Assembly: GCA_946699565.1 (NCBI GenBank)
Contig: CAMPDW010000012.1
Coordinates: 1-64,000 of the forward strand
Direction: 5' to 3'
Source: an uncultured Commensalibacter sp.
Lineage (GTDB): Bacteria; Pseudomonadota; Alphaproteobacteria; Acetobacterales; Acetobacteraceae
Length of the DNA stretch: 64,000 bases
In this document: in pieces, positions 6,151-19,194 of the stretch
Position numbering within the stretch: the first letter of the stretch is position 1
Layout: every line of letters begins with the position of its first letter
The notes under the pieces: generated by a model
What the model saw: only the letters and a program-made list of their open reading frames with translations
Database searches by the model: none
Told to the model about the DNA's origin: nothing
Translations under genes and position numbers: made by a program

Positions 6151-6241
6151 GGAGAGGTGGCCGAGTGGTTTAAGGCAGCGGTCTTGAAAACCGCCGTGCG
6201 TGAATAGCGTACCGTGGGTTCGAATCCCACCTTCTCCGCCA
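6151..6241 (+). tRNA. tRNA-Ser (anticodon UGA)
   Basis: The sequence folds as a class II tRNA. The acceptor arm is GGAGAGG (6151-6157) paired with CTTCTCC (6231-6237), the discriminator is G and CCA is encoded. The anticodon stem gcggt/accgc encloses loop CTTGAAA, giving anticodon TGA. There is a long variable arm (cgtgcgtgaatagcgtacc), and the T arm contains GGTTCGAATCC. It reads UCA and related Ser codons. The gene lies immediately before the accessory block starting with umuC. Serine tRNA genes are frequent integration targets, but I found no duplicated 3' end elsewhere in the window. Confidence 0.97.
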
Positions 6242-6316
6242 TTGAGTAAATTGTTGTTAAGATAGAATTATAAATTTAATTATTAAGTTTATAATTAATT
6301 TACTTAGTAAAAATAT

Positions 6317-7585
6317 CTAAATTCGTAATTTCAATATTTCCTCCCATCGTGTTGTATAGCGTTGGCTTAACTGTTCCCGTCTAAGGTGCCATTTTGCCTT
6401 TTTTGTTTGTCCACCGATGAAAATAGTATAGGAACCCATTTTTTGATTAATCCTGTCGATTACCTGCATAAGATTATCATTGCGCTTAATTAATTGATTA
6501 TTTTGAGTATAGGTAAAAAAATCAAGCTGCCTTTGATTTTTATGAATGATATCTAAAAGCATTATGCCCGCTTTATGATAATGGTATTCAGCTCTGAAAA
6601 TGTTATGAAGACCTTTTTGAGCCGTCTTTATGATTTCCCGGCTATCATCTGTAGGGTAGGACATGGATATGGCAAGGGAAGGGTTATGCTGTAAGGCTCG
6701 ATCGTGAAAACGATTGGTTCTTAAAAAAACTAGAATAGCATGGGCTATGGATTGCTGTTTTCTTAATTTTTCTGTAGCTCGGAAAGTATGAAAACGAATG
6801 GCTTCCTCTATATTAAACAGGTTATTGGTACTTTGACCAAAGCTGCGAGAAGCGACTATATTTTTCTTGGACGTATAGAAATCTGTTAGCTTAATACAGG
6901 AAATGCCTCTTAATTCCAAAATAGTACGTTCTAAAACAATTGAAAAATGCTGTTCTATAAATTTTGGGTTGCAGTTTTTCAATTGCCAAGCATTTTCAAT
7001 ACCCATTGTGATCAGTTTGGCATTTAAGCGACGACCAATTCCCCATATTTCAGAAATTGGTAAGTTTTCAAGAATATGTTGAAAGTCAGGACCATGAATA
7101 TCTAGGCAAAAAGTATTTTCATGTTTTTTATTTTTTTTAGCGATGTGGTTGGCTATTTTTGCAAGGGTTCTGGTGGATGACAGACCAATGGAAACAGGAA
7201 TTCCAGTGTTTCTCTTAATGATTTTTTGGACATTGCGACAATAGCCAACAGTTTTTTGATCTTCATTCAAATGAATGAATGCTTCATCAATAGAATAGGG
7301 TTCAACATGATGAAAATAATTTTGAATGGTCTTGAAAACACGTTGGCTCATATCACCATAAAGCTCGTAATTGGAACTTAACAGGGTGATTTTCTTTTGT
7401 AAGTCTGGGGAGATTTTAAAGGCTGGCATCCCCATAGGAACGAAGGGTTTAAGTTCGTTGGAACGGGCAATGATACATCCATCATTATTCGAAAGAATGC
7501 CAACGGGACGATTTTCTAATTTTGGATTAAAAACGCGTTCGCAGGAAACGTAAAAATTATTACAGTCAATCAACCCAATCATCAT
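6317..7585 (-). CDS. umuC: Y-family DNA polymerase V catalytic subunit UmuC
   Basis: At 422 aa it has the usual UmuC length. UmuC is the translesion polymerase that works with processed UmuD. The palm motifs are intact: the first metal-binding Asp in GLIDCNNFYVSCERVF (residues 4-19), then SNNDGCIIARSNE, and the catalytic YSIDEAF motif (Asp100, Glu101). The helix-hairpin-helix region (ISEIWGIGRRL), the little finger, and a C-terminal DUF4113-type segment (IFIGGQTKKAKWHLRRE) follow. Two ATGs (7585 and 7582) are possible starts. It lies 26 bp downstream of umuD in the same operon. Base composition is a little less AT-rich than the core genes. Such umuDC pairs are often carried by plasmids and prophages, which fits the neighbouring phage-like genes. 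Confidence 0.95.
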   Translation of the reverse strand: MMIGLIDCNNFYVSCERVFNPKLENRPVGILSNNDGCIIARSNELKPFVPMGMPAFKISPDLQKKITLLSSNYELYGDMSQRVFKTIQNYFHHVEPYSIDEAFIHLNEDQKTVGYCRNVQKIIKRNTGIPVSIGLSSTRTLAKIANHIAKKNKKHENTFCLDIHGPDFQHILENLPISEIWGIGRRLNAKLITMGIENAWQLKNCNPKFIEQHFSIVLERTILELRGISCIKLTDFYTSKKNIVASRSFGQSTNNLFNIEEAIRFHTFRATEKLRKQQSIAHAILVFLRTNRFHDRALQHNPSLAISMSYPTDDSREIIKTAQKGLHNIFRAEYHYHKAGIMLLDIIHKNQRQLDFFTYTQNNQLIKRNDNLMQVIDRINQKMGSYTIFIGGQTKKAKWHLRREQLSQRYTTRWEEILKLRI

Positions 7586-7611
7586 ATTATTTTTTTATGG
7601 TTGGGATTCTT

Positions 7612-8061
7612 TTAGCGATTACGATTTCTAAAGGAATGGATTGCATGAATGACCACCCCCCAGATCATGGTCTCCTTGTTCTTAATTTCTATGGGAGGAT
7701 AACTGGGATTGCCAGATTTCAGATAAGGAACATTATTTTTAATTGCCAAAGCCTTGCAGGTTAATTCCCCGTCAACAGAAGCAATAACGATATCGCCTTG
7801 ACGAGGTTCCAGAGAACGGTCAACGACCAGGAGGTCATGATCGAAAATACCATAATCGATCATGGAATCTCCAGAAACACGTATATAATATGTTGCGGAG
7901 GGATGATCAACCAAATGTTTGGTGAGCTCTAGTTTCCCTTCAAGATAGTCATCAGCGGGAGATGGGAAGCCCGCCTTTACCAGCATTTCAATATGAGGTA
8001 AACAATATCCGTATGTATCAGGATGGACAAGGTGAATGGAAGCTGCTTCCGTTTCAACCAT
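7612..8061 (-). CDS. umuD: SOS mutagenesis protein UmuD (S24 self-cleaving)
   Basis: This 149-aa protein is the polymerase V accessory subunit, which is self-cleaved during the SOS response. The predicted cleavage bond is Ala30-Gly31 in VKAGFPSPADDY. The catalytic dyad is Ser66 in SGDSMID and Lys103 in ELTCKAL, both present, so autocleavage should be functional. The ATG is preceded by GGAGATCAC, a good ribosome site. It is the first gene of umuDC. A 6-bp dyad lies 25 bp upstream (see 8086-8106), where an SOS operator would be expected. The product lacks the N-terminal DNA-binding domain of LexA, which separates it from LexA and phage repressors. Confidence 0.94.
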   Translation of the reverse strand: MVETEAASIHLVHPDTYGYCLPHIEMLVKAGFPSPADDYLEGKLELTKHLVDHPSATYYIRVSGDSMIDYGIFDHDLLVVDRSLEPRQGDIVIASVDGELTCKALAIKNNVPYLKSGNPSYPPIEIKNKETMIWGVVIHAIHSFRNRNR

Positions 8062-8085
8062 GATGTGATCTCCATAAATAATTTT

Positions 8086-8106
8086 TTAACTGATTATAAA
8101 AGTTAA
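8086..8106. promoter_or_regulatory. Dyad in the umuD promoter region, candidate operator
   Basis: TTAACT (8086-8091) and AGTTAA (8101-8106) form a perfect 6-bp inverted repeat with a 9-bp spacer, 25 bp upstream of the umuD start. This is where a LexA-type operator would sit. It matches neither the alphaproteobacterial GTTC-N7-GTTC box nor the enterobacterial CTGT-N8-ACAG box, so the assignment is inference from position and symmetry only. Confidence 0.3.
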
Positions 8107-8180
8107 TTTTTTATTAATCAATTATTAAAATTCAATGTTTATAGAGTCTTATCATCATAGATGAGAAACTTGAATTATTT

Positions 8181-8208
8181 ACCCATTCCTTGCGGTGGGT
8201 TTTTTTTA
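8181..8208 (+). terminator. Rho-independent terminator (plus strand)
   Basis: ACCCA-tt-CC, loop TTGC, GGTGGGT forms a GC-rich stem with a two-base bulge, followed by eight T. It works only for plus-strand transcripts, yet no intact plus-strand gene lies upstream between tRNA-Ser and this site. It therefore looks like the end of a deleted gene, left in front of the truncated ORF at 8245. Confidence 0.75.
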
Positions 8209-8244
8209 TTGTCAGTTTCTCCACATGTAAAAGGAAAAATCAAC

Positions 8245-8346
8245 ATGGCCAAAACGACAGGTGGAATTTATCTTAATCAATTGAAACATGAGGTCATAAC
8301 GCCAGCCCTGAATTATATCAATCTGGTAGGAGTTAAAAACGATTAA
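8245..8346 (+). pseudogene. Truncated phage-type ORF, 33 codons
   Basis: An ATG at 8245 follows an excellent ribosome site (AAGGA, 9 nt upstream) but the frame ends after 33 codons. The segment QLKHEVITPALNYINL resembles, from memory, the N-terminus of a phage structural/lysozyme-like family that starts with LK..VI.PAL..L.LWS; the rest of such a protein is missing. The longer frame from 8161 runs through the terminator and is not likely to be the real start. Base composition is less AT-rich than the DNA that follows. I read it as the 5' remnant of a phage gene cut by deletion or rearrangement. The family assignment is tentative. Confidence 0.4.
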
Positions 8347-8900
8347 CGAAGTCATAGAAATTTTTAAATATGATTAAAATTGATTAATATAAAAATATTT
8401 CTTATGTTAATGGATAAAAAATAAATAAAACGCTTTTTAGTCAAAAGACAATGAATCAACTGAATATTAATATCTATAATTATAGGTCATATTATCCAAA
8501 AATTGTTAGTCGTAAAATTTTAATCATATAAATTTAGATATTAAAATAATATTAATTAATTTTAGTTATAAATACTTTATTGAAATGTAACTTTTAAAAT
8601 TTTACGATTGGTAAACAATTGTAGAATTGTAAGTTCTAGTTATGTTAAATTTAAATATAAAATAAATAATGTTGGAATAAATAGTTTATTATTTGTATTC
8701 ATTAAAAATAAATAACTACCATTGAATTAAGGGTAATGAATTAGGTCTGGAAAACTATTGTACTCTTAAAATTTATTTCATCAATTTCAAAAGATATATC
8801 AAAATTTATAAATAATAGTTATTTAATGGATGGATGTAAATAATAAATTAAGGCGATGATAACTTAATATGTATTTTTAGTAATCAATAAGGATAGAAAA
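8347..8900. other. 554-bp AT-rich non-coding stretch before the fibre module
   Basis: No open frame with a ribosome site is visible on either strand. It contains the long imperfect inverted repeat at 8501-8620 and presumably the promoter of the fibre genes. The fibre gene's own ribosome site (AAGGA, 8 nt before the ATG at 8901) is at the 3' end. I could not identify a confident -35/-10 pair because nearly any hexamer here is A/T-rich. Confidence 0.6.
8501..8620. repeat. Imperfect inverted repeat, arms about 23-27 bp
   Basis: TCGTAAAATTTTAA at 8510-8523 is exactly reverse-complemented at 8594-8607. Symmetry continues outward: AATTGTT at 8501-8507 matches AACAATT at 8614-8620, with a small length difference between. 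The arms enclose about 70 bp. It could be a long hairpin in the fibre-gene leader, paired protein sites, or the ends of a tiny non-autonomous element. Confidence 0.5.
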
Positions 8901-10625
8901 ATGAGCTGTGAACAAGACAGTCAAATTATTATTGTTCCAGGGGGGTGTCTTGGAAATTGCGAGATTGATTTACAATGTAAATCACCATTAGAAAGTGTTT
9001 ATTATCAATTTTCAATGGTTAATCGTCTTTCTCCTTCAGATGCGATTAGCAGTGTAAGCGCACAATCTTCCGATGGGATGGTCAGTATTGATAATATTAC
9101 AATCTCCGGTCAAATTTTTAAGGTAAGAATTAGCGGTGGTATAATGAATACCAAAATTGGCATTCGTTTTTTAGTCACGACGCACGCTAATGAAGAACGT
9201 GAATTTATTGCTACCTTACCAATTATGCCAGGCGGAATTATTGGCAGTGGAGAAGCTGGTCATTATGTTTTGGGAGATACAGGTCCAGAAGGTAAACAAG
9301 GTCGCGCTGCAACAATTACGGTAGGTAAGGTATTACCTACGGAACCTGATGGAGATCCAAAAATTGTTAATTCAGGAACAGAGGTTGATGCGGTACTAGA
9401 TTTTATATTGCCTCGTGGTGCAGTGGGCCCTCAAGGTGAACAGGGGGAGGCCGCAACGGTAAAGGTTGGTAAAGTCTCTACAGGTGTACCAGGAAGTGAA
9501 GCTGTTGTTGAAAATACAGGAGATGAACATCATGTTGTTTTTGATTTTATTCTTCCAGAAGGTAAACAAGGTATCCAAGGTATTCAAGGAAAAGCAGGTA
9601 CACAGATTTTATTATCTAATCGTGATCCTATTGTACGGGATGCAAAGGAAAATATCATTTGGCTTAATGATGTAACTGGAGATTTGTTTGAAACAATTCC
9701 TCAAAGTAATGATCATTATATTTGGCAAAAATCTGGTAATTTAAAAGGTGAAGCTGGAAGTATTATTTATACGGGTACAATTGATCCTGTTTATAGTAAT
9801 GTCTATAAAATGGGTGATCTTTACTTTAATGTCACAACCAGCAATTTATTTTCATTTAATGGCAACCAATGGATTAAACTTGTTAGCTTGAAAGGCGAGC
9901 AAGGGAAACGTGGTTCTTTATGGTTTTTTGCTCAAGAAGACCCAGAACCTTCAACTAATTATAAGGTTGGAGACAGTTTTTTTAATACCGTTTCTGATGA
10001 TTTATTTGTTTTCAATGGTTCAAATTGGCAAAAAACTGGTAACCTTCGGGGTAAAACAGGTCTTCAAGGTGAACAAGGACCAAAAGGTGATGCAGGTAAT
10101 GACGGTAAAAGCGGATTGGATGGAACACGTATTATTACTAGCCAAAAAGACCCAGATAATGGAAGTGCTTCTTTAAATCCGAATGTAATCTGGATCAATA
10201 CAATAAGCTGGGAAGTAAAACGTACCATTTCCCAAGGAGATAACTGGGATTGGATTAGTCTTGGCATCATTAAAGGGGATCGGGGTATACAAGGTTCAAA
10301 GGGTGAACAAGGGAAAGGTATTAAATCTATCGCAGTTAATCCTGATTTAACTTTTTCAATAACAATGGATGATGGTTCTGTTCAGAATATTTTAACAGGT
10401 ATTTATAAGGATGAAAATAATTATCTTATATCTCCAAGAAATTTTTTTGAACTTCCATGTGATTTTTTTGTCAATGGTAATCTTTGTATGGCGTCAGATG
10501 ATTATGTAAATGGTTGTAAACAAATGCCTGATGGTTTGTCTTTAAATGGTAATATCGTTCTTACAGATGGTTCTGTATATTACAAAAACACCATCAATAA
10601 TGGTGGCGTTCTTTGCGTTGTCTGA
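8901..10625 (+). CDS. Collagen-like fibre protein with phage-tail-fibre-like N-terminus
   Basis: This 574-aa protein has no signal peptide. Residues 1-120 form a beta-rich domain (SVSAQSSDG...TISGQIFKVRISGG...) resembling the N-terminal attachment domain of phage tail fibres. Gly-X-Y runs then begin near residue 126 (GDTGPEGKQG, GAVGPQGEQG, GKQGIQGIQGKAG, and later GLQGEQGPKGDAG and GIQGSKGEQGKG near 465). Between them sit two copies of a module with VGKV..., a Gly/Pro loop, then a strand ending in DFILP (about residues 141-172 and 189-220). There are also three copies of a knob module with a G.LY/LF.F motif. Bacterial and phage collagen repeats form trimeric shafts. It is probably a receptor-binding fibre; a cell-surface role is the alternative. 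It is the first gene of the module and has a good AAGGA ribosome site. Confidence 0.8.
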   Translation: MSCEQDSQIIIVPGGCLGNCEIDLQCKSPLESVYYQFSMVNRLSPSDAISSVSAQSSDGMVSIDNITISGQIFKVRISGGIMNTKIGIRFLVTTHANEEREFIATLPIMPGGIIGSGEAGHYVLGDTGPEGKQGRAATITVGKVLPTEPDGDPKIVNSGTEVDAVLDFILPRGAVGPQGEQGEAATVKVGKVSTGVPGSEAVVENTGDEHHVVFDFILPEGKQGIQGIQGKAGTQILLSNRDPIVRDAKENIIWLNDVTGDLFETIPQSNDHYIWQKSGNLKGEAGSIIYTGTIDPVYSNVYKMGDLYFNVTTSNLFSFNGNQWIKLVSLKGEQGKRGSLWFFAQEDPEPSTNYKVGDSFFNTVSDDLFVFNGSNWQKTGNLRGKTGLQGEQGPKGDAGNDGKSGLDGTRIITSQKDPDNGSASLNPNVIWINTISWEVKRTISQGDNWDWISLGIIKGDRGIQGSKGEQGKGIKSIAVNPDLTFSITMDDGSVQNILTGIYKDENNYLISPRNFFELPCDFFVNGNLCMASDDYVNGCKQMPDGLSLNGNIVLTDGSVYYKNTINNGGVLCVV

Positions 10626-10684
10626 TGAATCTTATCTGACAGTTTTTTAAATTCAAAATTTAAACAATTCAATAGGATATTCAA

Positions 10685-11686
10685 ATGATCAATAATTCAC
10701 CAAAAGACTTAGATCTTTCCGCTTGTATAGTTTCTGATGATGGTGGTAATACAGTCCAGACATTATCAGAGATGGTTACGGAAGTAAAAAAGAATACTTC
10801 AGATATTGCAACGGCATCACAGAATGTTACCGCTGCAAAACAGGCAGCAGATAATGTTAATATTCAATTAAACAATGGAATTTATCTTACAAAGGAACTG
10901 TATACGAAGCCTGGTGGGATTATGAGACTTGACGAAAACCGTTCAACCGTTTTTCCCTCCAATGGTAGTGGAGATGTATATGTTAGCGGAGGGCAGAAAT
11001 TAAATGATGATGGATCGCCAGAGATAGACCCAACAATCAACCGTATCATTCATAATGATTATGTGCTTGGGAAAATTATTGTACAAGATATAAGCCTTAG
11101 TTATGATGGCGTGAGTGCCAATAAACAATTTTGGGGGACAACTTATAATCCATCCAATGTAAATTATAGTGATTTGGGAACGTCAAATTTACCATGGAGG
11201 GATTTATTCGTAAGTAATTCCCCTGTTGTCACTTCTGATATTAACAGTAAAACGGTTGTAACTGACAATATTGACAAAGATGAAGAACATTTAAAATTAT
11301 TGAATGTGGTTTATGGTGTTTCAACTAAGCTTTATAAACTTAATACTGTTATCGCGGAAAAAGGTATGGATAAAGCTAGATTGCATTCAGGTTTTATAGC
11401 CCAGGAGTTGCAAAAAGCGTTACAAGATCGTGGTCTCGATCCAAGGAAATATGCATTTTGGATTGAATCTCCTGAATATGACTATAAAGAAGTAGATTCA
11501 GGTCAAAAAGACCCACAAGGTAATCCTATTTTATTTAAAGAATATTTTCTTAAAAAAGATGAAAACGGTAATCAGGTTTATACGCAGTCTTTACGCTATG
11601 AAGAGCTGTTTTCTTTGTTGGCAGAGGCATTTAAACAGAAATTATTACAATTTGAAGAACGACTAACAAAACTTGAAAATAAATAA
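10685..11686 (+). CDS. Tail-fibre/spike protein with S74 intramolecular chaperone domain (first copy)
   Basis: This 333-aa protein has a short N-terminal motif (SPKDLDLSACIVSDDGG) shared with the product of 12110, a coiled-coil-like stretch (residues 26-60), a beta-rich middle, and a C-terminal S74 domain from about residue 165. The domain opens with the hallmark LGTSNLPWRDLFV...TSDINSK. Ser184 and Lys189 have the Ser-x4-Lys spacing of the self-cleavage dyad known in endosialidase-type chaperones, so it may release its C-terminus after trimer folding. It continues with HSGFIAQELQKAL and ends in a LLQFEERLTKLE coiled coil. It starts 59 bp after the collagen-like gene with a GGATATTC ribosome site. 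G+C is low (about 15/60 in the row at 11281), unlike the second copy. Confidence 0.85.
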   Translation: MINNSPKDLDLSACIVSDDGGNTVQTLSEMVTEVKKNTSDIATASQNVTAAKQAADNVNIQLNNGIYLTKELYTKPGGIMRLDENRSTVFPSNGSGDVYVSGGQKLNDDGSPEIDPTINRIIHNDYVLGKIIVQDISLSYDGVSANKQFWGTTYNPSNVNYSDLGTSNLPWRDLFVSNSPVVTSDINSKTVVTDNIDKDEEHLKLLNVVYGVSTKLYKLNTVIAEKGMDKARLHSGFIAQELQKALQDRGLDPRKYAFWIESPEYDYKEVDSGQKDPQGNPILFKEYFLKKDENGNQVYTQSLRYEELFSLLAEAFKQKLLQFEERLTKLENK

Positions 11687-12109
11687 AAGTTTTATTTAAT
11701 GATTAAAAAAAAATTCCCTTAAAAATTTAAATCTTTCAAATTATTTAGTCTTTTTTGATGGTGAAGATAGAATCCTAATTTTATCAGAGCCTATTAACAT
11801 TATAAATTTAAATATATATGATATTAAACCAACTTAAGAAAAATTGATGATAAATATTCATACAATAAAAATCGATATAAATAAATTTAATAAATACTGC
11901 TTTAAGAGCAGTATTTAACTTTAAATGATTATTATAAATATTAGGCAATAATTGGTAATTCAAATTGTTGAAATGGAGTGGCAGATATTATTGTCAGTAG
12001 GTAGAATAAACAATAAACAGATTGATTTTAAATATACAACTATAAAAGAGTTATTTATTCAACTTAATGCAAACATATTATAAAATAATCTTACAAGGAA
12101 TAGATAAAA
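11687..12109. other. 423-bp gap between the two S74 genes
   Basis: No credible gene is visible on either strand. It contains one strong hairpin (11891-11917) and, at its end, an AAGGA ribosome site for the gene at 12110. The rest is very AT-rich. The gap suggests the second S74 gene and the two genes after it are transcribed from their own promoter here. Confidence 0.6.
11891..11917. terminator. Perfect 11-bp hairpin, possible terminator
   Basis: TAAATACTGCT (11891-11901), loop TTAAG, and its exact complement (11907-11917) make a stable stem. It is followed by AACTTTAAAT rather than a clean T-run, though the arm itself ends in ATTTA. It lies about 205 bp after the first S74 gene and could stop its transcript, or act as a symmetrical protein site before the next gene. 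Confidence 0.5.
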
Positions 12110-13129
12110 ATGACTGATACTTCTCCAAACAGTATAGATCTTTCTAATTGTAATGTATCAACAGATGGAGGTAAAACAACTCAAACTTTAGCTGAAATAT
12201 CCAAGTCTATAAATAACGTAAGTATATCAATATCTGATATGTCAAACATAGCAAGTAATTCAAAAAAAGATGTTGAGGATATTAAAGCAGAATTAACAAA
12301 TTTATATGGAAAAAAAGATAACTTTAAACCCAATGGAATATTGCCCCTTGATAACACAGGTCAGTTTATGTTTCAACCTCCAAAAAATGATGGAGTTACA
12401 TGGATTGCAGTAGGATGGAAAAATGATGATATTGAAGCTTCTGCTAATCCTTTATCCAGAGAAATTCATTTGCAATATTCCGTAAATGGAACCCAAACTT
12501 CAGACAATAATAAAAATGGTATCGATACTATTTGGGATGATGGTTCAATTAAACCAAATTATGCATTTGGTGGAATTTCTTTTCATCCACAAAGTGATGG
12601 TGTGGGGAATTTGGGTCGTGATGGCAATTCCTGGAATAATATTTATTCGAAAACTGCCGTTAACGTGACATCAGATAAAAATGTTAAAAAGATTGTTTCT
12701 ACTTTTGATGAGAAGGCTGATGACATTCATATGGCCTTAATGGAATCTTTATATGACGTTAATGTCGTCAGCTATAAATTAAAGGATGCCATACGGGAAA
12801 AGGGTGAAGAGAGGGCCCGTATTCATACTGGTTTTATAGCCCAGGATATTGAGCGGGCCATAAAGGATGCGGGGCTTGATCCATCTGATTATGCCATGTG
12901 GACTCAGGATACGTCATCTGAATTTAAAATGGTTGACACGGGTGAAAAGGATAAAAACGGTAATCCTGTTTTAAAATCCTCATATGAACCACCCAGAGAT
13001 GAAAAGGGTGATTTGATTTACCGTCAAAAATTAAGATACACCGAATTGATTTGCATGCTGCTGGCGGCACATAAACAAAAAATCAATGGTCTTGAGGCAC
13101 GTTTACTGAAACTGGAAGGGAAGAAATAG
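12110..13129 (+). CDS. Tail-fibre/spike protein with S74 intramolecular chaperone domain (second copy)
   Basis: This 339-aa paralogue of the product of 10685 shares the N-terminal pattern SPNSIDLSNCNVSTDGG...TQTLAE, a coiled-coil stretch and a beta-rich middle. Its C-terminal S74 domain runs from about residue 166 (VGNLGRDGNSWNNIYS, then TSDKNVK). The putative self-cleavage dyad is Ser188 and Lys193. HTGFIAQDIERAI and a terminal LEARLLKLE coiled coil complete the domain. G+C changes inside the gene: about 16/60 in the row at 12241 but about 31/60 in the row at 12841, so the AT-rich head seems joined to a chaperone domain of different origin. The stop is 2 bp before the next start, which implies co-transcription with the 135-aa protein and CotH genes. 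Confidence 0.85.
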   Translation: MTDTSPNSIDLSNCNVSTDGGKTTQTLAEISKSINNVSISISDMSNIASNSKKDVEDIKAELTNLYGKKDNFKPNGILPLDNTGQFMFQPPKNDGVTWIAVGWKNDDIEASANPLSREIHLQYSVNGTQTSDNNKNGIDTIWDDGSIKPNYAFGGISFHPQSDGVGNLGRDGNSWNNIYSKTAVNVTSDKNVKKIVSTFDEKADDIHMALMESLYDVNVVSYKLKDAIREKGEERARIHTGFIAQDIERAIKDAGLDPSDYAMWTQDTSSEFKMVDTGEKDKNGNPVLKSSYEPPRDEKGDLIYRQKLRYTELICMLLAAHKQKINGLEARLLKLEGKK

Positions 13130-13131
13130 GG

Positions 13132-13539
13132 ATGACAAGATTTGACATAACACAGGGTCTTGCAACAGGTTCCCTTGGTCAGTCCATGACGGGCAGTCAA
13201 ATGGTTGATCGTCTGTCTTCTGGGGTATCCATGGAAACAAGAATTGTGGATGATGCGTCCATTGAGCTCATGTTTCCAAAAACGGGTGATATCGGTTATC
13301 GCCTTCTGGTGAAGAGGGATTGTGGACTTTCCCTGAAGAAGGGGCGACAGGGACAGCTGCAGCGCATGACCCTTGTCATCCAACAGCCTTATGGCGGTAA
13401 TTGTGAGGTTGAATTTGCAACATCGATCAATTGGCAAGATGGACAACCCTTCATTGATACAAGAATAGGTTCGGTTATAATTGTGGAAATCCTTTTTGAT
13501 GGAATAAACACTTTTTATGGAAGATTGATCTATGGCTGA
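13132..13539 (+). CDS. Phage tail-associated small protein (135 aa)
   Basis: This 135-aa soluble protein has no signal peptide. The C-terminal half has the pattern RMTLVIQQPYGGNCEVEF...SINWQDGQPFID followed by VEILFDGINTFYG. It resembles a beta module common at the ends of phage tail and receptor-binding proteins, usually L.Q..GG..V.W...V.W..G..P.L......D...F..DG..W.G. It starts 2 bp after the second S74 gene and overlaps the CotH gene by 8 bases, which suggests translational coupling. G+C is high for this genome. It may be a tail tip or an accessory subunit for the S74 protein or kinase. The exact function is unknown. Confidence 0.7.
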   Translation: MTRFDITQGLATGSLGQSMTGSQMVDRLSSGVSMETRIVDDASIELMFPKTGDIGYRLLVKRDCGLSLKKGRQGQLQRMTLVIQQPYGGNCEVEFATSINWQDGQPFIDTRIGSVIIVEILFDGINTFYGRLIYG

Positions 13540-14899
13540 TTTACAACAACCAACAACGGGATTTGTCAATAATGGCAGTCTTGTCCAATATGGTGCGGAT
13601 AATGTGGCGGCTCAATGGGATTACATTTCCCTGTCCAAACCTACCAGACCCTGGAGGATTTCCTTAAAGGGGGATCTTCCCACCAGCAAGGATGGGGTGG
13701 ATATGAGCGTATCTTTCTTTGAAGGGACGCTTCCCCTGTTTTCCGCAATGGGAACATGGAACCTGCAGGGTCAGTCCAGTCTTAATTCGCTTAAGAAGAA
13801 TTACAAGATCAAGCTTAAGAACGCGGTGACAGGCAATAAGCTGAAAGTCAGGATTGGTGACTGGTTTCCCCTGTCAGGTCTGGTTCTGAAAGGATATGGA
13901 ACGGACAGGACCCTGCTCAGGGATACGATTACAACCGAAATATGGCGGCATTTTCATCGTGATGAGGCGGGACGGCTGGCACCTGAGGCGATTTATTCCT
14001 ATCAGAATGATCAGGATTTGGGAATGAAGACATCGGCCCTGTTCTCAACAGCGGGTTTCCCCTGTGAGTTGTGGTGTAATGGTGAGTTTCTTGGACTATA
14101 TGTCCTAAGAAGTGATAATGATAATGATCAGTATCTCATCGACTCATCAAATCCGAAACATTTTCTTGCACAGCCTGACCATGCCACAACATTCTGGCAA
14201 ACGGGAAACTACAATTTTTTTGAATGGGAAATATATTCACCTGATCCCGTGTCTGATGACAGCATCAGTTTTCTAAAACGCTTTTTATCCTGGACAAGCG
14301 GGTGCATAAATGGATCCATCAATCCAAGGGATACCTATCGAAGCTACATTGATTTAACCTCATTCATTGATTACATGCTGTTGAATGATGTCGTTGTCTC
14401 ATTTGACAGTATTGTCAATAATTTCATGCTGTGCAGCTGGAATGCAGCCGCGACATCAGGAATAGTGTCAATTTACCCCTATGATGAGGATGAAACATTC
14501 GGGGTCATGGCAGCGCCAACCACTGTGGATCAGGCTGATCCCTATAATGTCGGCTGGGTCATGAAACGGGATAAAAGATATGGTGGACAGGACCCTATAT
14601 TCTTTGATATGCTTCATAAGTATTTCAGACCGGAAATACGGGCAAGATGGCGTCAATTACGTGATAAAAACAGGATTTCAGGCGAAACAATTAACAGGAT
14701 TATCCTAAATCAATCAAACCTGATCGATTCAAAATTGATGAAAAAGGATCTCCAGAACTGGCCCATGAATGGAGAAACAGGCATCGGTAATGCCATCAAC
14801 ATTTCAGACCAGGGTAAAAAATGGTCAGTCAACTATATCATGGATTACGCCAAACGACGCATCCAATGGCTAGACCAGCAGTTCAGGTATTATGGATAA
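13532..14899 (+). CDS. CotH-family kinase-like protein
   Basis: This 455-aa protein without a signal peptide carries the CotH-kinase signature in order: QGQSSLNSLKKNYKIKLK (residues 79-96, nucleotide-contacting lysine region), GTDRTLLRD (123-131), CNGEFLGLYVL (182-192), YIDLTSFIDYMLLN (272-285), FDSIVNN (291-297, candidate catalytic Asp292) and PYDEDETFG (316-324, metal-binding DxD, Asp318/Asp320). CotH proteins are atypical kinases; Bacillus CotH phosphorylates spore coat proteins. All the key acidic residues appear to be kept. Translation is coupled to the upstream 135-aa gene by overlap, and a terminator follows 10 bp after the stop. G+C is about 28/60 in the row at 13741, far above the neighbours, so it is probably imported. 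The likely substrates are the adjacent fibre proteins, but that is inference. The alternative is a structural tail protein that kept the fold. Confidence 0.82.
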   Translation: MADLQQPTTGFVNNGSLVQYGADNVAAQWDYISLSKPTRPWRISLKGDLPTSKDGVDMSVSFFEGTLPLFSAMGTWNLQGQSSLNSLKKNYKIKLKNAVTGNKLKVRIGDWFPLSGLVLKGYGTDRTLLRDTITTEIWRHFHRDEAGRLAPEAIYSYQNDQDLGMKTSALFSTAGFPCELWCNGEFLGLYVLRSDNDNDQYLIDSSNPKHFLAQPDHATTFWQTGNYNFFEWEIYSPDPVSDDSISFLKRFLSWTSGCINGSINPRDTYRSYIDLTSFIDYMLLNDVVVSFDSIVNNFMLCSWNAAATSGIVSIYPYDEDETFGVMAAPTTVDQADPYNVGWVMKRDKRYGGQDPIFFDMLHKYFRPEIRARWRQLRDKNRISGETINRIILNQSNLIDSKLMKKDLQNWPMNGETGIGNAINISDQGKKWSVNYIMDYAKRRIQWLDQQFRYYG

Positions 14900-14908
14900 A
14901 TATTAAAG

Positions 14909-14937
14909 AAAGTTACCATGAACAGGTAGCTTTTTTT
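14909..14937 (+). terminator. Rho-independent terminator after the CotH gene
   Basis: AAAGTTACC (14909-14917), loop ATGAACA, and GGTAGCTTT (14925-14933) form a 9-bp stem with one wobble pair, running into seven T. It begins 10 bp after the CotH stop and closes the fibre module. Confidence 0.85.
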
Positions 14938-15066
14938 AAAACTAATTTAAAAGAAAAAATAATGAAAAATTTAATTTCATTTATTTACTATAAATGTATT
15001 CTAATTGGCATATTATATAAATTGTAATTATTTATATTTAAATATTATTTTAGTTCATATTTTTAT

Positions 15067-15737: not shown

Positions 15738-17069
15738 ATGATTTTTTTTATAATTATCCCTATTATTTTAATTATTGTACTGACTACATTTTATAAAATT
15801 TTTCAAAATTGCCATAAAAAAAATAAACAATCTATAAATTATTCACGTGAATTATCTACAGAAAAAAATAATCCAATAGAATTGGGATTAATGTATTTAA
15901 AAGGGGATGGAGTATCTCAAAATTATCAAAAAGCTTTGGAATATTTCGAAAAAGCTGTCGCTTTGGGTTATGTGCAAGGACTTTTATATAAAGCTATTAT
16001 TTACTATGAGGGGTTGGGGGTAAAATCGGAAATTCAAAAGGCATTATCTTTGTTTGAAGAAGCGGCTAAAAAGGGTAATGCTAAAGCAATGCTTATACTG
16101 GGTAATATTTATAGTGAAGCATATAATATTACACAAGATTATACAAAAGCTCATGAATATTATTTATTTGCCGCACGTCAAGGTGAGGAAGAGGCATTAT
16201 TAAATTTAGGCTTATTTTGTCTTAAAGGAATAGGTGTTTCTCAGGATTATAGCAAAGCGCGTGTTTATTTTGAACAAGCTGCACAAAAAGGGAATATATC
16301 TGCAAAAAAATATTTAGCAATTATTTATTTACATGGATTGGGAATTCCTAAAGATTTAGAAAAAGCAAAAGAATACTACGAATTGGCTGCTAATCAAGGA
16401 GATCGTGAGGCTGAATATAAAGTTGCTTTAATGTATTGGAATGGAGAAGGATGTGAAAAAAATATATTGAAAGCAAAAGGATATTTTGAAAAAGCCGCTT
16501 ATCAAAATGAAGTTAATGCTCAATATTTTATAGCTAATCTTTATAATACAGGTCATTATGTAAAGTTAGATCATGAGAAAGCACTATATTTTTATAAAAA
16601 AGCAGCTAATCAAGGGCATGTTAAAGCACAATATATACTTGGACAAATATATGAAAAAGGTCAAAGTACAGAAATAAATATGAATCAAGCTATCTACTGG
16701 TATAAACAGGCTGCATCCCAGAATGACATGCAAGCTCAATATAATTTGGGTTATTTATATTTAACGGGACAAACTGCTAAGATTAATTTATCTCAAGCTT
16801 ATGAATATTTTAAAAAGGCAGCTGAACAAGGATATGTGTTAGCACAATTCAACCTAGGAATTATGTATTATAAAGGTGATGGTGTAAAACAAGATATGAA
16901 GAAGGCTGCTCAATGGTTTACAAAAGCTGCGGCACAGAATCACCAAAAAGCTCAATTTATTTTGGGACAGATGTATTTAGAAGGTAAAGGTGTTGCTCAT
17001 AATTTGGATAAAGGGATGCATTTAATTAAATTAAGTGAAAAAGTTGATCATGAACTTATTCAGGCTTGA
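15738..17069 (+). CDS. Sel1-repeat protein, about 11 repeats
   Basis: This 443-aa protein has an N-terminal hydrophobic anchor (residues 1-21) followed by about 11 Sel1-like repeats of about 36 residues each (residues about 48-435). They have the pattern A...LG..Y..G.GV..D...A..Y...AA.QG. Sel1 solenoids are protein-interaction scaffolds, in bacteria often periplasmic or secreted and linked to envelope processes or host contact. The anchor suggests it is held at the inner membrane or exported. The ATG has an AGGA ribosome site. It is followed 154 bp later by a larger protein of the same type; the two look like a tandem duplication that has diverged. The partner is unknown. Confidence 0.88.
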   Translation: MIFFIIIPIILIIVLTTFYKIFQNCHKKNKQSINYSRELSTEKNNPIELGLMYLKGDGVSQNYQKALEYFEKAVALGYVQGLLYKAIIYYEGLGVKSEIQKALSLFEEAAKKGNAKAMLILGNIYSEAYNITQDYTKAHEYYLFAARQGEEEALLNLGLFCLKGIGVSQDYSKARVYFEQAAQKGNISAKKYLAIIYLHGLGIPKDLEKAKEYYELAANQGDREAEYKVALMYWNGEGCEKNILKAKGYFEKAAYQNEVNAQYFIANLYNTGHYVKLDHEKALYFYKKAANQGHVKAQYILGQIYEKGQSTEINMNQAIYWYKQAASQNDMQAQYNLGYLYLTGQTAKINLSQAYEYFKKAAEQGYVLAQFNLGIMYYKGDGVKQDMKKAAQWFTKAAAQNHQKAQFILGQMYLEGKGVAHNLDKGMHLIKLSEKVDHELIQA

Positions 17070-17223
17070 TTTGTTGTTATTATCTATTATTTAAGTTTAT
17101 TCCCAAGTATTGAGTTATTAAAAATGTTTTTTTTCATAATTTTTTTAAAAATTTGAAAAGTTTATTTTATTTATTAAATTGTTTATAATTTATTTAATTT
17201 TTTATATTCATTGCGTTGTATTC

Positions 17224-19194
17224 ATGAAACGATCAAAAATTGCTTTTATTGGTAAAAGTGCAGGTGTTATTTGTATAGTTTTTGTTATTTTATGTGCTTG
17301 TTTTTATAAAACTATTCGTCGTGGTTTTATTGAAGCACAATTCAATCGAGCAAACCTTTATATGCAAGGTGAGGGTACTTCGCAGAATTTTAAAAAAGCC
17401 CGTGAATATTTTGAACAGTCTGCAAATGCTGGTAATGTTGAAGCTCAATATATGCTTGGTGTTATGTATGAATATGGTGAAAATACTGAACAGAATTATC
17501 AAAAAGCCATCCAATTATACCGTAAAGCCGCACGCCATGGTTATGTTAAAGCTCAATATGTTTTGGGAAATCTGTATAAAAATGGTAAGGGTGTTAAAAA
17601 AGATTTAAATCGAGCAATACAATGGTATCAAATTGCTGCGGACAAGGGTGAAATAAACGCACAATATCAATTAGGTTCAATATATATTGACAAATATGAA
17701 AATTCAGCATTGGTTTATAAAGGTATTAATTACATAAAAACATCTGCTGATAATGGAAATATTGACGCACTTTATTATTTAGGAAACCTTTATCTTACAG
17801 GTAATCATCTTTCAAAAGATGCGAAACAGGCTTTGCATTGTTTTGAACAGGCTGCTTATAAAGGTTTTTCCAAGGCTCAATTCAAACTTGCCAATATGTA
17901 TGAAAATGGCGATGGTATTACAAAAGATTATTCGAAGGCACTTTATTGGTATGATAAAGCTTCCAAAAAAGATCCAAAAGCACTTTATAATTTAGCTATG
18001 ATGTATTTGCAAGGAAAAGGATCTAACCCTAATTCTCAATTAGCTATATCTTTGTTGCAACAAGCGTCTGAAAAAGGAAATTCTGATGCTCAATATAAAT
18101 TGGCAACATTGTATGAAGAAGGAAAAATTGTTTCTCAAGATCATTCCAAAGCTTTAAATTTATATAATAGTGCAGCTAATTTAGGGAATAAAGAAGCAAT
18201 CTATGTTTTGGGTGAATTTTATTTTGAAGGTAAAAACGTCCAGAAGGATTTAAAAAAAGCTTATAGTTTATTTAAGAAATTAGCAGATGAAGGAGATGGA
18301 AAATCCCAGTATCAACTTGCTAGGATGTATATAACAGGAAACGGGGTTCCAAAAAATATTGCTATATCAGTTGATTGGTATAAAAAATCAGCCAAACAGG
18401 GATATGCTGAAGCACAATATGATCTTGGTAAATTATATGAAGAGGGATTATATGTTAATAAAGATTATGGGCAGGCTAAATTTTGGTTTGAAAAAGCTGT
18501 AGTAAAAAATAATTTACCCTCAATGTATATGCTTGGACTTATGTATGAAACGGGTCAGGGTGTTAAACAGGATTTGAATAAAGCAATAGAATATTATCAA
18601 AATGCAGCAAAACAAGGCGATATTCATGCACAATTTAACTTGGCTGAATTATATAAAAATAATGATCAATTAGATCAACATTATTCAAAAGCTATTTATT
18701 GGTTTAAGGAAGCAGCAGAACAAGGAAATGTCAGGGCTTATTATAATTTAGGGCAATTATATGAAAATGGATTGGGTGTAAAAAAAGACGTAAATCAGGC
18801 TTTTCAATATTATACGCAAGGTATGATAGCAGGAGATGTAGACTCACAATTTATTTTGGCAAAAATGTATTTTAAAGGTATTGGAACTCAAAAGGATATA
18901 ACCCAAGCAATAAAACTTTTAACTATTTTGGCTAACAATGAAAATGCCGATGCGTCTGAATTTTTAGGATTGATTTATTTAAATGGGCAAGGCGTAAAAA
19001 AAGATAATGTTCAAGCCGAATATTATTTAAAAAATGCTATAAAAGAAGATAATCCCCAAGCGATGTATGATTTAGCAATGTTTTATTTATCTTCAAAGGA
19101 TTCATTAAAAAAAACAAGAGCAAAAAAATTATTAAATGATAGTTGTAACAAAGGTTATTCAAATGCTTGCCTAGCTTTTAAAAGCATGAAATAA
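17224..19194 (+). CDS. Sel1-repeat protein, about 17 repeats
   Basis: I chose the ATG at 17224 (MKRSKIAFIGKSAG) over the upstream TTG at 17179 because it gives a normal positively charged N-terminus followed by a hydrophobic segment (residues 10-26). The 656-aa product has about 17 Sel1-like repeats through to the C-terminus (for example AQYMLGVMYEYG, AQYDLGKLYEEG, AQFILAKMYFKG) and ends in a half repeat with two cysteines (SCNKGYSNACLAF). It is probably an envelope-located scaffold. It shares its layout with the gene upstream but has six more repeats. Only 34 bp separate it from xylulokinase, which nevertheless has its own strong ribosome site. No ribosome site is obvious at its own start. 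Confidence 0.85.
   Translation: MKRSKIAFIGKSAGVICIVFVILCACFYKTIRRGFIEAQFNRANLYMQGEGTSQNFKKAREYFEQSANAGNVEAQYMLGVMYEYGENTEQNYQKAIQLYRKAARHGYVKAQYVLGNLYKNGKGVKKDLNRAIQWYQIAADKGEINAQYQLGSIYIDKYENSALVYKGINYIKTSADNGNIDALYYLGNLYLTGNHLSKDAKQALHCFEQAAYKGFSKAQFKLANMYENGDGITKDYSKALYWYDKASKKDPKALYNLAMMYLQGKGSNPNSQLAISLLQQASEKGNSDAQYKLATLYEEGKIVSQDHSKALNLYNSAANLGNKEAIYVLGEFYFEGKNVQKDLKKAYSLFKKLADEGDGKSQYQLARMYITGNGVPKNIAISVDWYKKSAKQGYAEAQYDLGKLYEEGLYVNKDYGQAKFWFEKAVVKNNLPSMYMLGLMYETGQGVKQDLNKAIEYYQNAAKQGDIHAQFNLAELYKNNDQLDQHYSKAIYWFKEAAEQGNVRAYYNLGQLYENGLGVKKDVNQAFQYYTQGMIAGDVDSQFILAKMYFKGIGTQKDITQAIKLLTILANNENADASEFLGLIYLNGQGVKKDNVQAEYYLKNAIKEDNPQAMYDLAMFYLSSKDSLKKTRAKKLLNDSCNKGYSNACLAFKSMK

What the first reader, a model, noticed from the sequence alone, without database searches (positions are those of the whole stretch)
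8901..14899. Fibre-plus-kinase cassette: collagen-like fibre, two S74 proteins, tail-like 135-aa protein and a CotH-fold kinase
Seen: five co-directional genes; the last three are tightly packed (2-bp gap, then 8-base overlap) and closed by a terminator 10 bp after the CotH stop. CotH proteins in Bacillus phosphorylate coat proteins, and collagen-like fibres decorate exosporia and phage tails. Pairing a CotH kinase with phage-style fibres in an alphaproteobacterium suggests a fibre that is phosphorylated after or during assembly, or a phage-derived host-contact device. No capsid, portal or integrase gene is visible, so it may be a domesticated tail module. The function is inference.
Basis: partly seen in the sequence, partly recalled or inferred. 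Interest (0 to 1): 0.78.

Follow-up and report, generated by a model that had tools for sequence, protein, structure and literature searches.

The report
Stranded phage tail-fibre cassette with kinase
In a bacterium of the insect-gut genus Commensalibacter, the far end of a virus's tail-fibre gene set has been left behind next to a tRNA gene, and its last gene encodes an intact-looking kinase of the CotH family that keeps company with such fibre genes in related genomes, hinting that some phages may chemically modify their own tail fibres.

Summary
The five genes are real and correctly placed. They lie in an 8.8-kb island (about 6253-15032) inserted just after tRNA-Ser(TGA); two Commensalibacter melissae genomes have the same flanks without it. 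The island also holds umuDC and a 31-residue phage-gene remnant, but no integrase, head or baseplate gene: a prophage remnant.

The cassette is the 3' end of a myophage tail-fibre operon. Relatives keep the order adaptor fibre, S74 fibre, D, CotH, some beside baseplate genes. S74 lies upstream of CotH in 13 of 13 close loci, with D (three copies incomplete) between in 12. CotH occurs in 8 of 397 family genomes searched. The predicted fold matches Bacillus CotH kinase; three active-site Asp are kept in 27 of 27 rows. In two distant phage contigs CotH is fused to BppU_N, a virion baseplate domain.

Best reading: CotH is a catalytically competent member of an exchangeable distal fibre module, probably acting on the fibre during assembly. 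Phosphorylation is untested.

Side finding: in sister genomes an orphan fibre cassette and the resident phage's fibre operon are kept near-identical, apparently by gene conversion.

The parts
6151..6241 (+). tRNA-Ser(TGA), left border of the island
   Evidence: ARAGORN; the same tRNA is at the empty site in G008 and G005
6253..15032 (.). Island (prophage remnant) absent from two C. melissae genomes
   Evidence: Homology with L130 and L131 stops at 6252 and resumes at 15033
6317..7585 (-). umuC-like DNA polymerase gene, cargo of the island
   Evidence: PF00817, PF11799 and others
7612..8061 (-). umuD-like (Peptidase_S24) gene, cargo of the island
   Evidence: PF00717
8245..8337 (+). Fragment (31 residues, 55% identity) of a 172-aa phage protein of unknown function
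   Evidence: tblastn; the full protein matches phrog_3108
8901..10625 (+). A: fibre with Gp77-like tail-adaptor N-terminus (residues 27-102), weakly collagen-like middle and a C-terminal domain (residues 462-573) that goes with S74 partners
   Evidence: Pfam; own profiles
10685..11686 (+). B: S74 fibre protein, conserved about 30-residue N-terminus
   Evidence: PF13884 4.6e-8; phrog_7121 tail fiber
12110..13129 (+). C: S74 fibre protein; G+C rises from about 33% to 46% near 12790
   Evidence: PF13884 5.8e-9
13132..13539 (+). D: small beta-rich protein, faintly like phage tailspike and baseplate proteins
   Evidence: Model pLDDT 80; best Foldseek E 0.013
13532..14899 (+). E: CotH-fold protein; D292, N297, D318 and D320 are the putative catalytic and metal-binding residues
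   Evidence: PF08757 3.4e-24; model and Foldseek; conservation
14903..14939 (+). Hairpin followed by T run, terminator-like
   Evidence: RNA fold z -5.9; not listed by the simple scan

Best explanation
The cassette is the distal (3') end of a myophage tail-fibre operon, stranded in an otherwise decayed prophage beside tRNA-Ser(TGA). A would dock on the tail through its Gp77-like N-terminus and ends in a domain that goes together with S74 fibre proteins; B and C are S74 fibres; D is a small beta-rich accessory; E is a CotH-fold enzyme. Shown by computation: island limits, operon order in relatives, CotH fold (predicted), kept active-site residues, and the S74/D/CotH linkage. Inferred: the A C-terminal domain, S74, D and CotH form one exchangeable distal fibre unit; CotH is made with the fibre, joins it or works on it, and would use ATP inside the producing cell to phosphorylate fibre partners. 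In this genome the rest of the phage is gone, so the cassette is most likely a leftover and not part of a working particle.
For: Empty site. Module beside baseplate genes in C. papalotli and, upstream of a contig-cut CotH, in IMG/VR contigs L028 and L030; in a Mu gp48-type tail operon in L115. S74 upstream of CotH in 13 of 13 close loci and D in 12 of 13. A C-terminal domain in 12 loci, each followed by S74; 15 loci whose A-type gene lacks that domain have no S74. Model of E: top two solved structures are the B. cereus CotH entries 5jda and 5jd9, E 4.5e-11 and 7.6e-11. D292, D318 and D320 in 27 of 27 rows, N297 in 25 of 27. BppU_N-CotH fusions in 2 of 7 CotH proteins scanned. CotH among tail genes in two annotated phages.
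Against: No biochemical test. D is only a 71-aa remnant in L018 and L019 although CotH is intact there, D is missing in L117, and CotH is decayed in L022 and L023 although S74 and D are intact, so the partners can be lost separately. No Ser-rich CotB/CotG-like substrate was looked for. The mean pLDDT of the CotH model is only 76. The loci are not independent (sister strains, two copies in one genome).
Confidence: 0.72

Rival explanations
1. CotH is a virion-borne structural or receptor-binding domain in these phages and its kinase chemistry plays no part; the conserved residues only hold a metal or nucleotide for stability.
For: In 11 of 13 distant IMG/VR loci the CotH ORF is long (619-1238 aa), and in 10 of 13 it follows a tape-measure-sized gene and a few more genes, the usual place of receptor-binding proteins (judged by eye). 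BppU_N fusions. A published note of CotH fused to hypervariable lectin domains in phages (PMC8008677, one passage).
Against: K88, D292, D318 and D320 are kept almost without exception while overall identity falls to about 20%, which suits an enzyme better than a scaffold.
Confidence: 0.35
2. The cassette is a domesticated host-contact device or a retained donor of fibre ends, kept by selection in the bacterium.
For: All five ORFs are open. In sister genomes orphan fibre cassettes are kept identical over 2.7-4.9 kb with the resident phage's fibre operon. The orphan CotH of two C. melissae-type genomes differs by 27 synonymous and 8 nonsynonymous changes, dN/dS 0.07 (binomial p 2e-12).
Against: The window genome has no matching partner copy and its copy of the resident element is broken. 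The low-dN/dS CotH tract is more diverged than its flanks, so it may have been imported from a phage. No secretion, sheath or tube gene lies in the island.
Confidence: 0.15
3. CotH is an accessory (moron-like) gene at the end of the operon with a role in the lysogen, unrelated to the fibre.
For: It is a separate ORF at the operon end. G+C at third positions is 41-47% in D-E against 20-26% in A-C. In L018 and L019 CotH is intact where D is not.
Against: It overlaps D by 8 bp, was not seen without S74 upstream in the 13 close loci, and is fused to a baseplate domain in other phages. The G+C shift begins inside gene C, so the end of C, D and E look like one block.
Confidence: 0.12

Closest known systems
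Bacillus CotH spore-coat kinase (PF08757; PDB 5jd9, 5jda)
   Same: Predicted fold (Foldseek E 4.5e-11) and the Asp pair that matches D228 and D251 by spacing
   Different: About 10% identity; lies in a phage fibre operon; no CotB or CotG substrate was looked for
Phage CotH proteins, e.g. Klebsiella phage ST437-OXA245phi4.1 gp13, Acinetobacter phage MD-2021a CotH, BppU_N-CotH proteins, CotH-lectin fusions
   Same: CotH domain in the tail or fibre part of the genome (PMC8008677 passage)
   Different: There CotH is mostly the C-terminal part of a longer protein; here it is a free 455-aa protein after S74 and D
S74 (endosialidase-chaperone) tail fibres and spikes
   Same: PF13884 over cut-off in B and C
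   Different: Short proteins with a shared about 30-residue N-terminus that accompany the A C-terminal domain
Pam3/E217-type myophage tails
   Same: In C. papalotli the module lies beside Pam3 gp18-like and E217 gp41-like genes
   Different: The window keeps only the fibre end; I did not test whether Pam3 or E217 carry CotH

Membership tests
CotH kinase family (PF08757) | Whole-domain profile match over the curated cut-off | tested here: met
   86.4 bits against 23.8, profile positions 4-322 of 322
CotH kinase family (PF08757) | CotH-kinase fold | tested here: met
   Predicted model; 5jda and 5jd9 are the top solved structures
CotH kinase family (PF08757) | Catalytic and metal-binding Asp residues (B. 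subtilis D228, D251) | tested here: met
   D292 and D318 align by profile and spacing; kept in 27 of 27 rows
CotH kinase family (PF08757) | Protein kinase activity | not testable with these tools
   Needs biochemistry
Phage tail-fibre operon | Tail-adaptor and S74 fibre domains | tested here: met
   PF23148 in A, PF13884 in B and C
Phage tail-fibre operon | Linkage to baseplate genes in relatives | tested here: met
   L020/L025, L028 and L030, L115
Complete prophage | Integrase, terminase, portal, capsid and tail genes in the element | tested here: not met
   None among the scanned proteins of the island; so a remnant
Tailocin | Sheath, tube and baseplate genes without head genes | tested here: not met
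   None of these among the scanned proteins of the island
Diversity-generating retroelement target | Reverse transcriptase with template and variable repeats | not tested
   No reverse transcriptase among the scanned proteins of the island; repeats were not searched

The most novel reading that the evidence does not exclude
Some tailed phages encode an active CotH kinase as the last gene of an exchangeable distal fibre module (A C-terminal domain, S74, D, CotH). It phosphorylates the fibre during assembly and so changes its stability or receptor binding: phosphorylated tail fibres as a new layer of phage host recognition.
Probability: 0.33. Interest if true: 0.78.

Novelty: new variant of a known kind. 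Interest (0 to 1): 0.55.

Why it matters
A protein kinase tied genetically to phage fibre proteins, with its active site kept from Acetobacteraceae prophages to distant phage contigs, makes a simple question testable: are phage tail fibres phosphorylated? A 2021 paper calls phage CotH proteins 'currently unstudied' (PMC8008677, passage seen). The module defined here gives a small set of proteins to test. The near-identity of orphan and resident fibre operons in sister genomes would, if it serves exchange of fibre ends, be a further route of fibre variation.

Tried and rejected
Single-sequence search of solved structures found nothing at E up to 1; the profile search found only 5jd9/5jda. Single-sequence scans of genome and viral contigs found no relative; the alignment query found 16 viral and 5 genome loci. 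DNA search of known phages with the whole cassette and protein search with D found nothing. Exact repeats of 15 bp or more between 6151-6400 and the rest of the window: none, so no att repeat was found. dN/dS of the window CotH against relatives failed because synonymous sites are saturated. A motif search meant for the S74 cleavage site took the first match in each protein, which lies outside the S74 domain, so I draw nothing from it. The Fisher test printed used 16 negative loci, one of which (L094) ends at a contig edge; I report 12 of 12 against 0 of 15 and no p-value, as loci are not independent. 'Domesticated device' was demoted after the empty-site comparison.

Rows set aside. One search examined 36 sources. 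A C-terminal domain: 12 sources have it; 15 have an A-type gene without it (one of them, L024, still has a 23-residue CotH end); L094, L096 and L099 are cut by a contig end; L095 had no A match; L018, L019, L021, L116 and L118 have no A match. The CotH count of 13 leaves out the short CotH scraps in L023 and L024. In the 27 rows, L020 and L046 are the same gene and L118 is one open piece of a split gene.
Full report
Observation. Pfam finds a Gp77 fibre-tail adaptor domain in A, S74 domains in B and C, and a CotH domain in E, all over cut-off; Collagen in A is under its cut-off; D is unassigned. PHROGs places B and C with tail fibre and tail spike families, A with an unnamed family first (phrog_31364, 4.3e-55) and then tail fibre families, and E with three phage families of unknown function, best E 2.1e-60.

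Host. The window lies in a 1.92-Mb genome in 29 contigs. Two 'same genus' genomes have contigs of the same length as named records: Commensalibacter melissae AMU001 (G005) and C. papalotli MX01 (G007). The genus is therefore Commensalibacter by inference; the species of the window is not known.

Where it sits. A tRNA-Ser(TGA) gene lies at 6151-6241. In G005 and G008 the transporter gene, the same tRNA, the GNAT gene and the two long repeat genes follow each other without the cassette; homology with the window stops at 6252 and resumes at 15033. The 8.8-kb island so defined holds umuC, umuD, a fragment of a 172-aa phage protein and A-E. One search scanned 13 sister loci for tRNA genes and found one or more in 11; leftovers of fibre operons lie close to tRNA-Ser(GCT) in L018, L019 and L087, tRNA-Ser(GGA) in L024 and L098, tRNA-Arg in L022 and tRNA-Phe in L078, while L020 and L080 showed none. 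An integrase remnant (Arm-DNA-bind_3, E 2.5e-20) remains in L087. This is the pattern of prophage remnants that keep the fibre end. No att repeat was found in the window.

What it came from. In C. papalotli the order coll-S74-D-CotH lies directly downstream of baseplate genes: wedge proteins (phrog_6, phrog_120), a Pam3 gp18-like plug and an E217 gp41-like hub. That element has itself lost its middle: one ORF carries an integrase match and a tail-lysozyme domain. Two IMG/VR contigs, L028 and L030, end inside a CotH gene 71% and 79% identical to the window's, and carry BpJ-like, A, S74 and D genes upstream. A different tail type, with a Mu gp48-like gene, carries the same distal unit in L115, and an unrelated-looking 40-kb viral contig, L029, does too. 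The unit thus occurs behind several tail types.

The distal unit. With profiles built here (the seeds include the window's own proteins), 13 loci have a full, contig-cut or split CotH; S74 lies upstream in 13 of 13, and D in 12 of 13, of which L018 and L019 keep a 71-aa remnant and L118 an incomplete copy; L117 has none. A survey of 397 Acetobacteraceae genomes found CotH in 8 genomes at 9 places; all 9 are among the 13. The C-terminal domain of A was found in 12 loci, each followed by S74 (in L089 and L090 only its start is visible before the contig end); 15 loci with an A-type gene lacking this domain have no S74. Against a tight D-CotH partnership: CotH is intact beside a broken D in L018 and L019, and broken beside intact S74 and D in L022 and L023. 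G+C at third positions is 20-26% in A-C and 41-47% in D-E, and G+C rises within C near 12790, so the end of C, D and E look like one block of other origin; umuC and umuD are also high (42% and 55%).

CotH itself. A model from an 18-sequence alignment (mean pLDDT 76, pTM 0.80) has B. cereus CotH 5jda and 5jd9 as its top two solved structures, E 4.5e-11 and 7.6e-11; the next hits are PI3-kinases at E 1e-3 and weaker. By profile alignment with 5jd9 (E 0.003), D292 and D318 of the window take the places of B. subtilis D228 and D251, whose exchange inactivates that enzyme (PMC7821199 passages; the mapping rests on the 23-residue spacing). D292, D318 and D320 are present in 27 of 27 rows, N297 in 25 (Ser in two), K88 in 25 (one row lacks that part, one has another residue). 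Among viral predicted structures 12 match at E 0.001 or better. In 13 distant IMG/VR loci the CotH ORF is 416-1238 aa long, in 11 of 13 at least 619 aa; in 10 of 13 it follows a tape-measure-sized gene and a few further genes, judged by eye. Of 7 CotH proteins scanned, 2 carry an N-terminal BppU_N domain. In Klebsiella phage ST437-OXA245phi4.1 CotH is annotated between a tail protein and fibre genes, and in Acinetobacter phage MD-2021a upstream of an NlpC/P60 and a host-specificity gene.

D. The model (pLDDT 80, six sequences) is all beta; best Foldseek matches are a phage baseplate protein and tailspike TSP4, E 0.013 and weaker. This is a hint, not an assignment.

Mechanism. Shown: predicted fold, active-site residues, genetic linkage. 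Inferred: CotH is made with the distal fibre; ATP is scarce outside cells (general knowledge), so if it is a kinase it most likely acts while the fibre assembles, with A, S74 proteins or D as likely targets. The fusions argue that CotH can be a virion part. Which role dominates is open.

Gene conversion in sister genomes. G005 and G008 have a phage element whose terminase, portal, protease and major head genes were identified in G008, near riboflavin genes, and an orphan fibre cassette about 340 kb away in G008. In G008 the two share 3462 bp without a difference, and in G005 4919 bp at 99.98%. Over the 3462-bp stretch the genomes differ at 44-45 sites; of 45 variable sites 44 group the copies by genome, one is private to one copy, none groups by locus. 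Both loci are flanked by matching DNA in both genomes. This is the signature of concerted evolution, most simply gene conversion. Beyond a sharp junction the copies carry unrelated fibre ends. G006 has a like pair, 2742 bp at 99.78% and 606 bp at 100%. Not every orphan shows it: L018 and L080 share no such stretch with the resident element of their genome. The window genome has no partner copy; an element of the resident kind on G000:C7 is broken, and that it is the same site rests on its neighbours by eye. Assembly polishing could add to the identity. A function as a donor library is possible but unproven.

Literature. PMC8008677 (one passage of the Discussion) says that CotH-family kinase domains are occasionally seen in phages fused to a hypervariable lectin and are unstudied. 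PMC4159848 (one table passage) lists 6 CotH proteins among variable proteins. PMC10149009 (passages) reports several prophages per Commensalibacter genome and has no occurrence of CotH. PMC11677781 and PMC10818511 (passages) mention CotH outside phage tails; PMC7216180 and PMC4237756 hit only an author's name. Searches listed no paper on a CotH gene in a fibre cassette of this kind; searches were read as listings apart from the papers named. Subscription journals are mostly not held.

Verdict. Real, phage-derived, probably a relic in this genome; the kinase-fibre link is strong and little studied, its chemistry untested.

Noticed in passing
L022 2477-5938 with L076 11066-14527 (G008); L023 1583-6501 with L077 9353-14271 (G005); L078 with L079 (G006): Orphan fibre cassettes are 99.8-100% identical over 2.7-4.9 kb to the resident phage's fibre operon in the same genome, with different fibre ends beyond a sharp junction; 44 of 45 variable sites group by genome and none by locus. 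Looks like ongoing gene conversion of tail-fibre genes.
   Followed up: partly
L084, L076, L083 (G008); L077 (G005); L079 (G006); L095 (G003); L081 (G000:C7): A myophage element near riboflavin genes in several Commensalibacter genomes, broken on G000:C7; perhaps an old, vertically inherited phage element. No integrase was looked for systematically.
   Followed up: partly
L025 2911-4674 (C. papalotli): One ORF with a phage integrase match (residues 40-101) and a tail-lysozyme domain (396-504): a deletion junction that removed the middle of a prophage.
   Followed up: no
G000:C15:4319-4885 and G000:C29:889-1407: Full-length relatives of the 172-aa phage protein (phrog_3108 family) whose fragment lies at window 8245-8337; near tRNA-Leu on C15. 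It follows fibre genes in many sister loci.
   Followed up: partly
L018 9737-11107 and L019 9715-11085: Orphan CotH beside a broken D gene; the two genomes differ by 27 synonymous and 8 nonsynonymous changes (dN/dS 0.07), but the tract is more diverged than its flanks, so it may have been imported.
   Followed up: partly
L035 7328-11044 and L036 7433-11023 (IMG/VR): BppU_N-CotH fusion proteins: a virion upper-baseplate domain joined to a CotH domain.
   Followed up: partly
6317-8061: umuC and umuD genes inside the island, divergent from the fibre cassette; a umuC/umuD pair also lies beside a fibre remnant at another tRNA-Ser in L098, so umuDC may be phage cargo.
   Followed up: partly
15738-17069 and 17179-19194: Two neighbouring long genes that look by eye like SEL1-type repeat proteins, present at the same place in G005 and G008.
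   Followed up: no
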